Shown here one piece after another: positions 1,540-8,874 of a DNA stretch of 32,238 nucleotides. Numbering within the stretch: the first letter of the stretch is position 1; every line of letters begins with the position of its first letter. Position numbers and translations under genes: made by a program. The DNA is from Deltaproteobacteria bacterium (GTDB taxonomy: Bacteria; Desulfobacterota; Desulfobaccia; Desulfobaccales; 0-14-0-80-60-11). The stretch spans positions 1 to 32,238 of the forward strand of contig JAKAKP010000162.1 of assembly GCA_021813445.1 (NCBI GenBank). The letters run 5' to 3'. Under the pieces are notes generated by a model. That model was given only the letters and a program-made list of their open reading frames with translations. It was not told the origin of the DNA and did no database searches.

Positions 1540-4503
1540 TTAGCGGCCGCGGGAGCCGCCGCCTCCTGCTCCCCCGCCAGGCCCGCTGCCGGAGCCACGG
1601 CCGCCTGAGCGGCCTCCTGGAGCTCCTGAGGGCCCTCCAGATCGTCCACTTTCAGCCCCCCTCCCTGACGAGCGTCCGGCTTCAGACCCTCGGCCGCCTT
1701 GAGGGTCGGCTGCGGTTGCTCTTTCTTGTCGTGGACGGATAGGCCTTTCTTCAGAACGCCGATGGTCAATATTTTCATCGGGAGAATCCAAACGCCTGCG
1801 GACCTCCAATGCGATTTCCTTCTCGCCGGAGCGCAGGTGAAGCCCCTCAGACAACTTACCCAAATTGTCCGTGAAAACCTGTACAGCGTTTTTGGCCCTG
1901 GAGATAGCAACGTAAAAACTTTTCTGGTTGGTCAGAATAGGGCGGTGGCTTTCGGCATGGATCAAGGCGCGGTCAGCGGTGGAGCCCTGAGCCTGGTGGG
2001 TCGTGACGGCATAGCAGTGGTTCCAGTGTTTAAAATGCGCTAAATTGACGTCAATTGTCTGGCCGTTTTTCAGGGTCACTGCCGCCTGGCCGTTTTTAGG
2101 ATCAATGCTGTTCACCCGGGCGGTCTCGCCGTTGACGATGGCGTCATGGGGAGCGTTCCTGGTGAACACGATCTTGTCCCCCTGCGCGACTTCGCGATTT
2201 ACGCCCTGGTAAACCTCCACTTTACTCATCTTGGAGGGTTGCCAGGCAAGGGTCAGCTCGCCCCGGGAGAGAAGGACGCTCTTGCCGTCCACCCGAGTAA
2301 CAGTCCAATAAGACCCCTTGGTGACGCCATGCTTGGCATAGGTGCGGGAAAACCGTACAACGTTGCCGGGCTGGTAGCTCCTGGAACTTCTTATTTGTGA
2401 TTTAGTCAAGTTCTGGCGGTTCAAGGCGGTGGCCTGGAAACCTTGTTCATGGACGGTGCCCTCGGAGACCAGGCCCTGCCGGATCATGGAATTGATGGTC
2501 TGGCGGTCATCGAGACCGGGAGCAATGACAATGGTCCCCTCGCGCTCTGCCGGCGGCAATGCGAGAAACGCCGAAGAAATGGCTTGAGCGCGCTGTTCCA
2601 GGCCGGCCAGGCGGTCGCCACCGGGGTTGGAGATTTGGATGACGCCGCCCTGGGCGCTGATATTCTGCAAGGCCTCCGCCGCCCGGCCGGCGTAGGCGCT
2701 TTCAACCGCGTCGCGCAGTTGGCTATTCTGCTGGCGCAGAATGGTCTCTAGGCGGAAGGTCTTAACATTCTCTTGAAGCTGGGCAAACGCCCGGCCCGCC
2801 TCCACGGACCCCAATTTCCGGGTATCGCCCACCAGTAGGACTCTGGCGTTTTGGCCCTCGGCGGCATGCATCAAGGAATTAAAAAGCTTGGATCCGGCCA
2901 TAGAAGCTTCGTCCACAATCCAAAGCGAATTCCCCGTTGGCTATTGCCCTTGGGCTTGAGCCTGCCGCAACTGCCCGAGAAAAGAATGGACCGTCTGGGA
3001 TTTGACATGGGCTCCATCCTCCAGTACGTGGGATGCGGCCGCGCTGGGGGCGAGACCCCGGACCTCATAGCCATTCAGTTCAGCCATGCGGGAAACTGTG
3101 CGGAGCACGGTGGTGGTTTTGGCGGACCCAGCGATACCCTGCACGACGACAAACCTATCCTTGCTGGTAAGGATGCCTTCGGCGGCCTGGCGCTGCTGGT
3201 CGTTCCAGGGAATCGTCGACTCGGCCAAGGCGATAGCAGCCCTCGCTTGATCCGGGCCGGCAATGCCCTCCTGAAAAGCTCCGCGCCCCCGATCGGCTGC
3301 GGCCAGCATCTGCCGCTCAATCTCCTGCCCCTGGGGGGTGGTGAATCCGGCCTCCCGTTGGTGGGAATTCCATAAGGTTGCAACCGGCTTGTCGATCAGC
3401 TCGCCTTGGGAGCGGAAGCGATCCACGGCCTGGTCAATCTCGCTCCGGGGAAACTCGCCGAAAAACTGGACATTCATAGCCTGGTGAAGGTCGGCGGCCC
3501 GGAACGAGGCGCTCCGTTCGGCCAGGTGGTCTACTGCGGATTTCAGGGCCTGGTCAACCACTGCCTGCCGGTCGGAGACGGGTTGGCGGGCCAAAACCGC
3601 CACGCGCTCCCGGGATTCCGATACGGCTCTCTGGGGATCGAACCCGAGAGCCTCGGCCCGGGACTGCCATTCCTGCCGAAGTTGTGCTGGGTCAGCCTGA
3701 ATCTTTGCATCCCTGGTTAAAAGACAGGCTTGCTCACGCTCTCGGGCAGAAGCGGTCTCTCTGGTTTTTCCCAAGGCTGCAAGCCGATCTTCGATGGCCG
3801 CGCTTCTATTACTGAAAGCGTCCCGAATCTCCTGTGGAACCGCGGCCAGCTCCATGCGCCCTTTTTGTCGGTCCAATGCCACCTCGTAACCCAGGGCCTG
3901 AGCGCGGACTGCAAGCTCGTTTTGATAAAATCGGGTGGCCTCTTTTTGGAGGCGCAACACCTCGCGCCCTTCGATGCTACGCCATTGACCGTCGGCCCTG
4001 AGGGTGGCGTTAGCGATAATCGCATGGGTGTGCAACTGGGGGTCCTGGGCCCGGCTCGTTTCGTGGCGGAACATTGCCACGGTGAAATTACCGGTGTGCT
4101 CTTGGTAGGTCTGCCCGTGGATTTTTACTCTGGTGACCGCGGCCTCCTGCTCCAGCCAATCGAGAGTAGTTTTCACCGACTCGGTGTGGGCCTCAATTAA
4201 CCGCTGGTCGCCTCCGGCCAGTGCGGCCAGCGAAATCGATTTAGGGGCAGAAAAGGTGACGTCATAGCCACATTTATGTTCTACTTGTCCCTCGGCGTTG
4301 ATTCTGCCCAGAACGTCGCCGGTGGATAGGCGGCCCTCCAGGACCGCGGCGAAATCGTTGTGGTCTACGGCACCGGAAAGCCCCAGAGGCTGCGCCCCGC
4401 GACCGTACCACTCGGAGACCACTTCGCTGCGGGCGTAATAGTCATCGCGCTCGTAATACTTGGCGGCCTGTCCTGGGCTGGATATGGGGGAACAGGAAAT
4501 CAC
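1540..4503 (-). pseudogene. traI: MobF relaxase-helicase TraI, interrupted by an in-frame amber codon
   Basis: MobF/TrwC-type conjugative relaxase fused to a helicase; it would nick oriT, bind the strand covalently through tyrosine and unwind the plasmid. The reading frame spans 987 codons in one phase. Residues 15-24 carry the double tyrosine pairs (YY at 16-17 and 22-23), His147/His158/His160 form the metal-binding HxH triad, and GIAGSAKT at about 457-463 is Walker A. Codon 521 is TAG (2941-2943). The frame resumes at once with the Walker B segment LWIVDEASM and helicase motifs to the end, so both halves are conserved in the same phase. The C-terminal ~60 residues are Gly/Arg/Ser-rich. The start is GTG 4501-4503, overlapping the traD stop by four bases (GTGA). 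A GTG at 2914-2916 could restart but lacks a good ribosome site. Most likely a nonsense mutation (CAG to TAG) or a sequencing error. Confidence 0.9.
2941..2943 (-). other. In-frame TAG codon inside traI
   Basis: Plus-strand bases cta at 2941-2943 read TAG between Gln520 and the Pro-Thr-Gly that leads into the Walker B region. Upstream and downstream frames have the same phase, so this is a substitution and not an indel. One transition from CAG (Gln) would explain it, and the preceding residues are Gln-rich. TAG is the natural stop of hybO, hybD, livM and the histidine kinase in this window. Confidence 0.95.
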
Positions 4504-6433: not shown

Positions 6434-7204
6434 TCATGGCAACCTGTAAAAATTTCCGTCAAGATCAAAAATCAACTTATCTTCGGAAACTAGGCTGTTG
6501 ATGACCGTATGCCAGTCTGGATGCCGCCGTTTGTTGAGGTTCTGTTCTAACGAACGTTTGGACATAATTTTGTTTGGGTTATCCCTCACGGCCGCCAAAA
6601 TTTTCTGCGCAAGGGGGGACTGTGCCTGCTGGTCCCCCGCCTGGTCGAACTCCTCCGGTGACTCTGTCGCCTGGTCGGCATGATCGACCTGGTGCTCTAT
6701 ATCGTGCGTGACGGCCGAAGTATCTGGCTGAGGAGGTTTTCGGGTCACCTGCCAGAGTATGGCGGCCACCAGCAGCAGCGCGGTAACCGCGATCGCTGCA
6801 AACTCAGACCAATCCCAAACGTAAGAAAATGCGCAAAGCGCTGAAATTCCCGCCAAAAAGCCTATCCAAAATGGGTGGATAATGGGGGGCGAGGGCGCGG
6901 CCTGGGTGTTGGGGTTAGGAGCGCTCTGGCCAAGGGGGATTTCGGTACTTTGAAGGCGGGCTTTCTCGGCCTTGAGGTGCGCTTCGAGGTCCACCAAATA
7001 TTTGTTTCGGCGGTAGGCCAACCGGGGGCCTAACCAGGCCGTAACCGCGGACCCAACGACATAGAGCAGCGGAACTAGCCCCAAAGCCAGTATGGAGGGA
7101 TCGCGTAGGAAATTATGCCAGGGGACATGTGCGTTGTTCCGGAACCACCAGAGCGCGGATACAGTCGCCGCGGTGATGGCCGTGTTCCAAAGATGAATTC
7201 TCAT
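6434..7204 (-). CDS. Membrane protein with C-terminal winged-helix-like domain
   Basis: A 256-aa protein of no recognised family. Four probable membrane segments lie at about 6-20, 36-58, 111-130 and 134-153, with a basic, charged loop (63-85) between the second and third. An acidic linker (160-195) leads to a soluble C-terminal domain (196-256) whose pattern (AAVRDNPNKIMSKRSLEQNL, then a paired helix and a short hairpin ending YRLP) suggests a winged helix. It lies directly upstream of traD, where R388 encodes the oriT-binding TrwA. It could therefore tether element DNA to the membrane near the coupling protein; this is inference. The start ATG overlaps the end of the preceding frame (ATGA). 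The stop is TGA at 6434-6436. An unrelated type IV secretion accessory role is equally possible. Confidence 0.7.
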   Translation of the reverse strand: MRIHLWNTAITAATVSALWWFRNNAHVPWHNFLRDPSILALGLVPLLYVVGSAVTAWLGPRLAYRRNKYLVDLEAHLKAEKARLQSTEIPLGQSAPNPNTQAAPSPPIIHPFWIGFLAGISALCAFSYVWDWSEFAAIAVTALLLVAAILWQVTRKPPQPDTSAVTHDIEHQVDHADQATESPEEFDQAGDQQAQSPLAQKILAAVRDNPNKIMSKRSLEQNLNKRRHPDWHTVINSLVSEDKLIFDLDGNFYRLP

Positions 7205-7524
7205 ATTCTCTCCTGTGAAATATCGACCGCATATCTCTGAAAATAAATTACGCGAAGCAATTCTATGATCAATTTGTCACCAGGTTGATGTCTCTTTTTA
7301 CTGAATGGAGGAAGCTTATCGTAACAATATTGGTATTCCTCGCAATCAGGATTTTCTAACATAGATTGAAACCCTTTCTCTAACTGTATTCTCAGTTGTG
7401 CTAATTGTTGCTTGCGTTTATCGTCGAGAATTGTGGCTTCAATTTCAATTTGATCTTGCTCATAACTCGTGTAGTCTAATGGTTTACGATAATATCCGCT
7501 ATCACTTATTGGGGTATGGAATCA
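7201..7524 (-). pseudogene. Open frame continuing past the TGA of the winged-helix gene
   Basis: Immediately after the TGA at 7522-7524 the same reading frame stays open for 106 codons and ends at TGA 7201-7203, overlapping the start of the membrane protein gene by four bases. There is no ATG, GTG or TTG in frame before ATG 7360-7362, so most of it cannot be translated independently. The peptide looks coding: hydrophilic and mixed (YYRKPLDYTSYEQDQ), then a helical stretch (KRKQQLAQLRIQLEKGFQSM) and a Tyr/Cys-containing segment. The simplest reading is that this is the C-terminal part of the upstream protein, cut off by a nonsense mutation. Readthrough, or translation of a short 53-aa product from 7362, are alternatives. 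Confidence 0.6.
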
Positions 7525-8439
7525 ATCAATAGGCTTTTTTACCAATTTAGCGTCCCAATCATTGTCCCCTTTGGTCTTTTTTTCTTGGGCTTCTTTTTTC
7601 CTTTTGCGTAAATCAAAATCAGCATGCTTTAATGATTCCAGCATCAGGGCTGGTTTTATTTGGTATTTTGTGATCCAGGCCTGCACTATTGAAGCGCGCA
7701 GGCCATTACGCCGCCAGAATCTCAAATCCATGTCGTTTTCGAGAACCTCTTCCCAGTTTATGGGAGATTGGGGTTCCTCCCTGTTAATAGCAGTCAGGCT
7801 TTTTTTACTAGTACTAGACTGGCTACTACTAGAGGGGTTCGGACGGCAGGTCGGACGGTCGTCAGTTTGGTCAACGGTTCGGACACCAGTTCGGTCGCCA
7901 GTTCGGACGGGGAGCAAGGCCGCGAAAGAGGTTCCGCGAGCACTAAAAAATATGCGGCACTTGGTGCGGTTGATCTCATACTGGATGCCCTGGAAAAGGC
8001 CTTTTCTGTATTGCCTGCGCTTCTCTAAAAACCCTTCCTTCAAAAGAAGGGTTGTTATTTTCCTTACTGATTCGGGGGGGATGCCCGTCATCAAGGAAAT
8101 GTTCTGGTAACTCGCAATGCCAGATGGGTCCTCCATGAGGAGGAGGAGAACTAGGGCTTGTCTATCATTCAGCCAATAAATTTCTGATGGAGAAAGTTGC
8201 GACAGAGAATTTGCAGGCTGGCCGTCAGTTCGGACACCAGTTCGGCCGTCAGTTCGACCGGGAGCTTGGACGGGAGGTAGGTCGGGCGGACAGCCGCCAG
8301 GTCGGGAGGTAGGTCGGCAGGTCGGACGGGAGGTAGGGAGGTAGGTCGGGCGGACGGCCTCCAGGTAGGGCGCCAGGTCAGGCGGCAAACTGAGAGGATT
8401 CTCGAGGTCCGTTGTGGCCATGGTCTCTGACTCAGCCAT
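7522..8439 (-). CDS. Winged-helix protein with Arg/Thr/Pro repeat tracts (replication or regulatory candidate)
   Basis: A 305-aa DNA-binding protein candidate. Residues 88-157 form a MarR-like winged helix (LNDRQALVLLLL, then a recognition-helix region IPPESVRKITTLLLKEGFL). It is flanked by two low-complexity tracts: 29-73 (PTYLP, PTSRP, RTDGRT) and 178-200 (RTGDRTGVRT, DRPTCRP), followed by a Ser-rich linker and a Trp-containing C-terminal region. The two tracts correspond to clusters of repeated DNA motifs. The start is ATG 8437-8439 with AGGA seven bases upstream; an internal ATG at residue 7 is possible. The frame ends at TGA 7522-7524 but continues beyond it, so the original protein was probably about 412 aa. 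Position between a regulator block and the transfer genes fits a replication initiator or transfer regulator, but no catalytic motif was seen. Confidence 0.72.
   Translation of the reverse strand: MAESETMATTDLENPLSLPPDLAPYLEAVRPTYLPTSRPTCRPTSRPGGCPPDLPPVQAPGRTDGRTGVRTDGQPANSLSQLSPSEIYWLNDRQALVLLLLMEDPSGIASYQNISLMTGIPPESVRKITTLLLKEGFLEKRRQYRKGLFQGIQYEINRTKCRIFFSARGTSFAALLPVRTGDRTGVRTVDQTDDRPTCRPNPSSSSQSSTSKKSLTAINREEPQSPINWEEVLENDMDLRFWRRNGLRASIVQAWITKYQIKPALMLESLKHADFDLRKRKKEAQEKKTKGDNDWDAKLVKKPID
7836..7912. repeat. Iteron-like repeat cluster 1 (GTTCGG/GGTCGG units)
   Basis: Short units of GTTCGG, GGTCGG and CAGTTCGG recur at about 10-12 bp spacing inside the winged-helix gene. The 18-mer GTTCGGACACCAGTTCGG at 7877-7894 is repeated exactly in cluster 2 (8228-8245). 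The spacing is close to one helical turn. Confidence 0.55.
8221..8385. repeat. Iteron-like repeat cluster 2 (GGTCGG/GGTAGG units)
   Basis: A dense run of GGTAGG, GGTCGG and GTTCGG units encodes the N-terminal Pro/Thr/Arg tract. It contains the exact 18-mer of cluster 1 at 8228-8245 and two copies of a 34-bp unit, 8273-8306 and 8337-8370, that match at 31 of 34 positions by my reading. Confidence 0.6.
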
Positions 8440-8450
8440 GTCATTCCTAT

Positions 8451-8699
8451 CTAAAGAGAATCAATAAAAGCATCAAGTAGCTCGATCTTAAACAAAGGTT
8501 TGCCCCCAACTCGCACGGGCCGGACCGGGAAAGGGTTTTTGGCTCCTCTGCAGAGCATGTTCCTAAGAGTTTTTGGGGAAATACCTACGTATCGAGCCGC
8601 TTCGTCTACGGAATATAAACGTTTTGGCGATGTTTTTTGGATGATCTTTCTAAGTTCGGAAAGTATTTTATTTAGATCAGTTGGTTGCGAAGATTTCAT
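8451..8699 (-). CDS. AlpA/excisionase-like small HTH protein
   Basis: An 82-aa DNA-binding protein. A short helical N-terminus (1-30) leads to a MerR/AlpA-type helix-turn-helix (YSVDEAARYVGISPKTLRNML) and a wing (FPVRPVRVGGKPLFKIELLDAFI), the usual layout of excisionase or AlpA-like proteins of integrated elements. The start ATG at 8697-8699 lies inside the end of the XRE gene in another frame and has a GGGGGC purine stretch upstream; a longer frame reaching 8792 only overlaps the XRE gene. The likely role is recombination directionality or activation of element genes, inferred from family and context. Confidence 0.78.
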   Translation of the reverse strand: MKSSQPTDLNKILSELRKIIQKTSPKRLYSVDEAARYVGISPKTLRNMLCRGAKNPFPVRPVRVGGKPLFKIELLDAFIDSL

Positions 8700-8874
8700 C
8701 TTCTTTTGCCCCCAGTTTCTCACAAATACGTCTACGAAGATTTTCATCGGGTTGCCGCCAACCCCGCACAATTTTCGAAAGTAGCGCCTCATGAATTTTT
8801 AAATGATAAGCAAAGTTGACTTGAGAACCGTATTTAATGAAAATGAGTGATTTTAGTTTGTAGTTGGTACCCAT
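8677..8874 (-). CDS. XRE-family (Cro/CI-like) repressor
   Basis: A 65-aa single-domain helix-turn-helix protein. The pattern GSQVNFAYHLKIHEALLSKIVRGWRQP followed by LRRRICEKLGAKEDEIF is the classical HTH_3 fold. A strong ribosome site (GGAGGAAGTAAC) precedes ATG 8872-8874. It overlaps the downstream AlpA-like gene by 23 nt, so the two are translationally coupled. A short inverted repeat (8894-8900/8933-8939) just upstream is a candidate operator. The role is probably control of element excision or transfer. Confidence 0.8.
   Translation of the reverse strand: MGTNYKLKSLIFIKYGSQVNFAYHLKIHEALLSKIVRGWRQPDENLRRRICEKLGAKEDEIFATN

What the first reader, a model, noticed from the sequence alone, without database searches (positions are those of the whole stretch)
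7836..8385. Iteron-like DNA clusters inside a winged-helix gene
Two clusters of GGTCGG/GGTAGG/GTTCGG units, sharing an exact 18-mer and a near-identical 34-bp unit, flank the DNA-binding domain coding region. They give the protein its Arg/Thr/Pro tracts. Initiator genes with origins inside them are known (lambda O), so this may be an origin embedded in its own initiator gene.
Basis: inference. Interest (0 to 1): 0.65.

Follow-up and report, generated by a model that had tools for sequence, protein, structure and literature searches.

The report
Plasmid origin hidden in initiator gene
The repeats are real DNA signals written through a gene for a DNA-binding protein, and relatives on many plasmids of sulphate-reducing bacteria suggest that this gene carries inside itself the site where its own protein starts plasmid copying; the copy in this window looks broken.

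Summary
The repeats are real: an exact 18-mer joins the two clusters, and a 34-bp unit recurs in another reading frame. They flank a winged-helix (WH) domain on both sides.

Thirty-seven other members of the family were collected, nearly all from Desulfobacterota, including complete plasmids (pDMC2, pDRET01 and others), where the gene is annotated as hypothetical or merely helix-turn-helix. Most sit directly behind parA. The arrays are DNA signals: one unit is often read in two or three frames, periods are 11, 12 or 13 bp, and array type follows the WH and not the C-terminal domain. An inverted repeat, usually with an AT-rich loop, follows array 2 in many. GC-skew minima fall in or near the gene on 8 of 12 plasmids. 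The smaller plasmids show no other recognised initiator.

Best reading: a plasmid replication initiator with its iteron origin inside its own gene, working like pSK41 RepA_N or lambda O but matching neither family. A centromere role, alone or in addition, is not excluded. The window copy is probably a relic: in-frame TGA, degraded inverted repeat, no parA.

New variant of a known kind. No binding or replication assay exists.

The parts
7201..8439 (-). Whole reading frame of the WH initiator-like gene; ORF as listed is 7522-8439 (305 aa), homologous frame continues to about 7204 behind an in-frame TGA
   Evidence: profile match through one TGA
8214..8386 (.). Array 1: GGTCGG/GGTAGG-type units, upstream (N-terminal) of the WH codons
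7960..8187 (-). Winged-helix domain, about aa 85-160
   Evidence: AlphaFold2 model; weak MarR/Rrf2/IclR HTH hits
7836..7911 (.). Array 2: GTTCGG-type units, downstream of the WH codons
7800..7833 (.). Degraded remnant at the place where many homologues have the (TAG)n / AT / (CTA)n inverted repeat
   Evidence: score 6, p=0.48 here
7465..7704 (-). Helical C-terminal domain, about aa 246-325, cut by the TGA
   Evidence: (CTD profile E=2e-21)
7522..7524 (-). In-frame TGA
8451..8792 (-). HTH_17 / Tn916-Xis-like gene directly upstream, where plasmid members have parA

Best explanation
The gene belongs to a family of plasmid replication initiators, mainly of Desulfobacterota, that carry their own origin inside the coding sequence. 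The winged helix binds the 11-13-bp iterons that flank its own codons; an inverted repeat, usually with an AT-rich loop, just after array 2 is the likely unwinding site; the helical C-terminal domain probably recruits the replication machinery. Most members form a pair with parA. Shown by sequence analysis: the repeats are kept as DNA and not as amino acids, array type goes with WH type, the inverted repeat recurs at the same place, and GC-skew minima lie at or near the gene on most plasmids tested. Inferred: binding, melting and initiation. The window copy, probably in an integrated element, is probably inactive.
For: One unit read in two or three frames; 13-bp and 11-bp periods; array type tracks WH and not CTD, 0.52 against 0.016 shared, p=5e-5; inverted repeat with sequence-divergent arms, combined p=2e-17 against synonymous shuffles; GC-skew minimum inside the gene on 5 of 12 plasmids and within 3 kb on 3 more, Fisher p=2e-5, maxima 0.98; no other initiator recognised on the 8.9-kb pDMC2 (annotation) or 21-kb G523:C3 (Pfam); WH related to DnaD_N (5e-7 for L010) and to DnaD-like/O-like phage families; pDRET01 has a separate ParA/ParG pair.
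Against: No experiment. parA next door and the link between parA and arrays (p=4e-8) point to partition as well. GC-skew minimum is not at the gene on BuS5, pDMC1, G523:C2 and G523:C3; several tested plasmids are related. No DnaA boxes beside it. Parts of the family show no strong inverted repeat. D. sulfoxidireducens p1 also carries another annotated replication initiation protein.
Confidence: 0.66

Rival explanations
1. The protein is only a centromere-binding partner of ParA and the arrays are the plasmid centromere; replication is started by something not recognised here.
For: parA directly upstream in 26 of 35 loci; members without parA lack arrays; WH fold resembles the pNOB8 centromere-binding protein AspA.
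Against: No other initiator recognised on pDMC2 and G523:C3; parA-less members keep WH and CTD; pDRET01 already has a ParA/ParG pair; WH family hits to DnaD-like and O-like replication proteins.
Confidence: 0.18
2. The arrays are operators: the protein represses its own (and parA's) expression by binding inside the gene, without an origin there.
For: Sites inside the gene and WH-array matching would also fit an autorepressor; WH fold is that of many repressors.
Against: Arrays lie hundreds of bases inside the coding sequence on both sides of the WH; GC-skew minima and inverted repeat are not explained.
Confidence: 0.07
3. The arrays are slippage-made minisatellites that code for disordered linkers and have no DNA function.
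For: Spacings in the 12-bp class are mostly multiples of 4, as slippage of a tetranucleotide would give; the linkers are predicted with low confidence, as disordered regions are.
Against: One unit in three frames in both arrays of one gene; array type tracks the WH and not the CTD; arrays persist in a decayed second copy on BuS5 and matching blocks lie in non-coding DNA on D. ovata.
Confidence: 0.04

Closest known systems
RepA_N initiators of Gram-positive plasmids (pSK41 Rep; PMC5703833)
   Same: WH N-terminal domain, binding sites centrally inside the rep gene, linker encoded by the origin, helical C-terminal domain, DnaD resemblance
   Different: No RepA_N Pfam match; arrays on both sides of the WH; iterons read in several frames; inverted repeat; paired with parA; Desulfobacterota
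Lambda O protein and ori-lambda (PMC7466680)
   Same: Iterons plus AT-rich tract in the middle of the initiator gene
   Different: Plasmids and not phages (no phage relatives); many short 11-13-bp units on both sides of the WH; only weak O-like matches
RepC of repABC plasmids (PMC3155836)
   Same: Origin inside the initiator gene, ParA gene upstream, no DnaA boxes
   Different: No iterons in RepC origin; no ParB gene between parA and this gene; no RepC Pfam match
AspA of plasmid pNOB8 (centromere-binding WH)
   Same: Winged helix encoded with a ParA system; similar fold
   Different: The family here has a long helical CTD and sites inside its own gene

Membership tests
RepA_N plasmid initiators | RepA_N domain (PF06970) at the N-terminus | tested here: not met
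   not among Pfam matches of window and homologues
RepA_N plasmid initiators | Binding-site repeats inside the rep gene between N- and C-terminal domains | tested here: met
   array 2 in window and homologues; binding itself not tested
RepA_N plasmid initiators | DnaD-like N- and C-terminal domains | tested here: inconclusive
   DnaD_N 5e-7 for one member; DnaD 9a5c_B among structure hits; CTD not searched alone
Lambda O-type initiators | Phage_rep_O domain | tested here: inconclusive
   PF04492 E=0.083 in L011; PHROG O-like 9e-5 in L047
repABC RepC | RepC Pfam domains and parA-parB-repC order | tested here: not met
   no RepC match; gene follows parA directly
Type Ib ParA partition operon | ParA followed by its DNA-binding partner | tested here: met
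   parA directly upstream in 26 of 35 loci; the partner is a WH plus CTD protein, and its partition role is not tested
DnaA-dependent origin with DnaA-trios | DnaA boxes next to (TAG)n-type repeats | tested here: not met
   (TAG)n present in some lineages but DnaA-box-like sites near the gene on only 2 of 10 plasmids, one each
Any iteron origin | Initiator binds the iterons and replication starts there | not testable with these tools
   needs binding and replication assays

The most novel reading that the evidence does not exclude
One gene does four jobs: initiator, origin, centromere-binding protein and centromere. ParA's only partner would be the initiator itself, so that copying and segregation of the plasmid share one DNA array, written through the coding sequence in whatever frame is free, and WH-iteron pairs diversify together into incompatibility groups.
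Probability: 0.22. Interest if true: 0.88.

Novelty: new variant of a known kind. Interest (0 to 1): 0.72.

Why it matters
It offers a replication system, with its origin located to a few hundred bases, for plasmids of sulphate-reducing bacteria that carry no annotated initiator, including pDMC2 at only 8.9 kb. It could give shuttle vectors for hosts that are hard to manipulate. It also makes testable how an initiator and its binding sites diverge together when both sit in one reading frame: the same array is tolerated in all three frames, so the protein linkers appear free to change while the DNA is held.

Tried and rejected
Amino-acid selection on Arg/Thr/Pro tracts: rejected, because one DNA unit is read in two or three frames. 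Viral contigs and phage records: no relatives. DnaA-trio element as such: not held, since DnaA boxes do not lie beside it and other lineages use AGAT-type arms. Iterons elsewhere in the window: chance level. Structural search: the WH fills the list (MarR, ArsR, AspA, DnaD); the CTD was not searched alone, so nothing is claimed about its fold. The synonymous-shuffle test for sharing between arrays is not informative where both arrays have the same peptide repeat or few shared units (L010, L011, L012, L030, L043, L044, L047). Element boundaries in the window: the hydrogenase side is conserved in related genomes but their contigs are too short to show an empty site. A partial correlation failed numerically and is not used.

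Full report
OBSERVATION. The minus-strand ORF 7522-8439 holds two clusters of GGTCGG/GGTAGG/GTTCGG units, at about 7836-7911 and 8214-8386. They share the exact 18-mer GTTCGGACACCAGTTCGG (7877, 8228; longest match in 300 shuffles 14), and a 34-bp unit recurs 31/34 at 8272 and 8336, 64 bp apart, that is in another reading frame. Sixteen of 36 repeated 10-mers in the arrays are read in two or more frames, and the arrays share 20 distinct 9-mers against 4.0 after synonymous shuffling, 0/1000. The units do not occur elsewhere in the window above chance. Between the clusters lies a winged helix, predicted with pLDDT about 84-91 per block.

THE WINDOW COPY. The ORF stops at TGA 7522-7524, but the same frame continues with clear homology to about 7204 (the profile match runs through one TGA). 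The relaxase gene of the same element also has one in-frame stop, TAG at 2941-2943. The gene has no parA beside it but an HTH_17/Xis-like gene upstream, and the inverted repeat that follows array 2 in many homologues is degraded here (score 6, p=0.48). I read this copy as part of an integrated, decaying mobile element; that is inference, and assembly error has not been excluded.

THE FAMILY. Direct searches with the window protein found few relatives; alignment searches found many. Five paralogues lie on separate contigs of one Desulfobacca MAG, with read coverages of 3.8 to 16.1 in the contig names. Others lie on a lake contig binned as Chloroflexi (L030), on plasmids of Desulfosarcina sp. 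BuS5 and D. ovata, in 32 of 297 genomes of one order sample, and on complete plasmids of S. magneticus (pDMC2, pDMC1), S. carbinolicus, D. retbaense, D. bizertense, Desulfolutivibrio and N. vulgaris. The features under the matches are named hypothetical protein, or in one case helix-turn-helix domain-containing protein. parA is directly upstream in 26 of 35 loci with enough sequence.

THE ARRAYS ARE DNA SIGNALS. In L007 the 12-mer GAACACCCAAGC is read as EHPS, NTQA and TPKR. In L047 one 12-mer is read as STRP, LPDR and VYPT; 12 of its 15 repeated 10-mers occur in all three frames. Several Desulfovibrionales members use a 13-bp period and the second BuS5 copy an 11-bp period, which shift the frame at each unit. 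Not every gene mixes frames: L011, L012 and L030 keep one frame in their arrays. On BuS5 a decayed second copy of the gene keeps the arrays and the inverted repeat, and on D. ovata blocks matching array 2 lie in non-coding DNA upstream. On pDMC2 and most other replicons the units are not enriched close to the gene outside it.

ARRAY TYPE FOLLOWS THE WINGED HELIX. Gene pairs with CTD identity of at least 0.75 share 1.6% of repeated 8-mers when the WH is under 45% identical (14 pairs) and 52% when it is at least 60% identical (7 pairs), p=5e-5. L081 and L082 have CTD 88%, WH 15% and share nothing. Pairs are not independent, and close linkage of arrays and WH could contribute; L010 and L030, whose array 2 is built differently (12-bp against 24-bp units) but which share repeated 8-mers, argue for selection on the core.

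INVERTED REPEAT. After array 2 and mostly 55-110 nt before the CTD many members have an inverted repeat, usually with an AT-rich loop. The arms differ in sequence between lineages: (TAG)n/(CTA)n, AGTAAGTAG, TAGATGATGATTT, TAGAGAGAGAT, AGATAGATAGA, AGAAAGAT, AGGAAGGA. Against synonymous shuffles the combined p is 2e-17; members are related, so this overstates the independent evidence, and several members show no significant repeat. It may act as unwinding element, cruciform or RNA hairpin; which is not known.

ORIGIN SIGNAL. On 12 plasmid-size replicons the cumulative GC-skew minimum lies inside the gene on five (G403:C2, G505:C2, G449:C2, pDMC2, D. sulfoxidireducens p1), 359 bp away on D. ovata, 1.8 kb on D. 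bizertense and 3.0 kb on G531:C4; Fisher p 2e-5, against 0.98 for maxima. Some of these plasmids are related to each other. The test gives no support on BuS5, pDMC1, G523:C2 and G523:C3. No other initiator was recognised on the 21-kb G523:C3 (Pfam) or in the annotation of the 8.9-kb pDMC2 or BuS5; D. ovata has a RepB-primase-domain protein close by, and D. sulfoxidireducens p1 another annotated replication initiation protein. Unknown types cannot be excluded.

PROTEIN. WH best hits: DnaD_N E=5e-7 for L010, DnaD-like helicase loader and O-like PHROGs; structurally a general MarR/ArsR winged helix with AspA and DnaD among the matches. The CTD is helical in the model and conserved.

REPLICATION OR PARTITION. 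For partition: parA next door, and members without parA lack arrays (0-24 against 31-259 repeated 9-mer positions per kb, p=4e-8). The window gene is the exception, with arrays (83 per kb) but no parA. For replication: no other initiator recognised on the smaller plasmids, a separate ParA/ParG pair on pDRET01, parA-less members keep WH and CTD, GC-skew minima. Both at once would fit everything; it is the novel case.

KNOWN SYSTEMS. Origins inside initiator genes are established for lambda O (PMC7466680), pSK41 RepA_N (PMC5703833) and RepC of repABC plasmids (PMC3155836). The family works like these but does not match the RepA_N or RepC Pfam domains and matches O-type families only weakly. Searches of the held library found no description of it; that library is incomplete.

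Noticed in passing
window 2941-2943: The TrwC-type relaxase gene (2941-4503 and 1540-2916, same frame) is cut by one in-frame TAG, a second sign of decay of the element.
   Followed up: partly
NZ_CP087953.1 100338-100960 (in L043): A decayed second copy of the gene on the BuS5 plasmid keeps tandem 11-bp iterons and a (TAG)n/(CTA)n inverted repeat while its coding part has broken down.
   Followed up: partly
NZ_AP021877.1 88900-90600: Three similar non-coding blocks upstream of parA on the D. ovata plasmid carry array-2-like units in the opposite orientation.
   Followed up: partly
L079, L080, L083, L089-L093: Members without parA in loci read as chromosomal lack arrays; those whose neighbours were read (L079, L080, L083, L089, L091) have a small Xis/HTH-like gene upstream, and L089, L092 and L093 keep the inverted repeat AGTAAGTAG/CTACTTACT.
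   Followed up: partly
G000:C143:6457-6744 (L039): A CTD-only relative of the initiator lies in the same genome near a recombinase-like gene.
   Followed up: no
12-bp-class genes, incl. window 8272-8385: Repeat spacings are mostly multiples of 4 (8, 12, 20, 24, 32, 56), as if the basic quantum were a tetranucleotide.
   Followed up: no
NC_012795.1 3057-3941 and 4363-5169: pDMC2 also encodes two DnaB-like helicase C-terminal-domain proteins.
   Followed up: no
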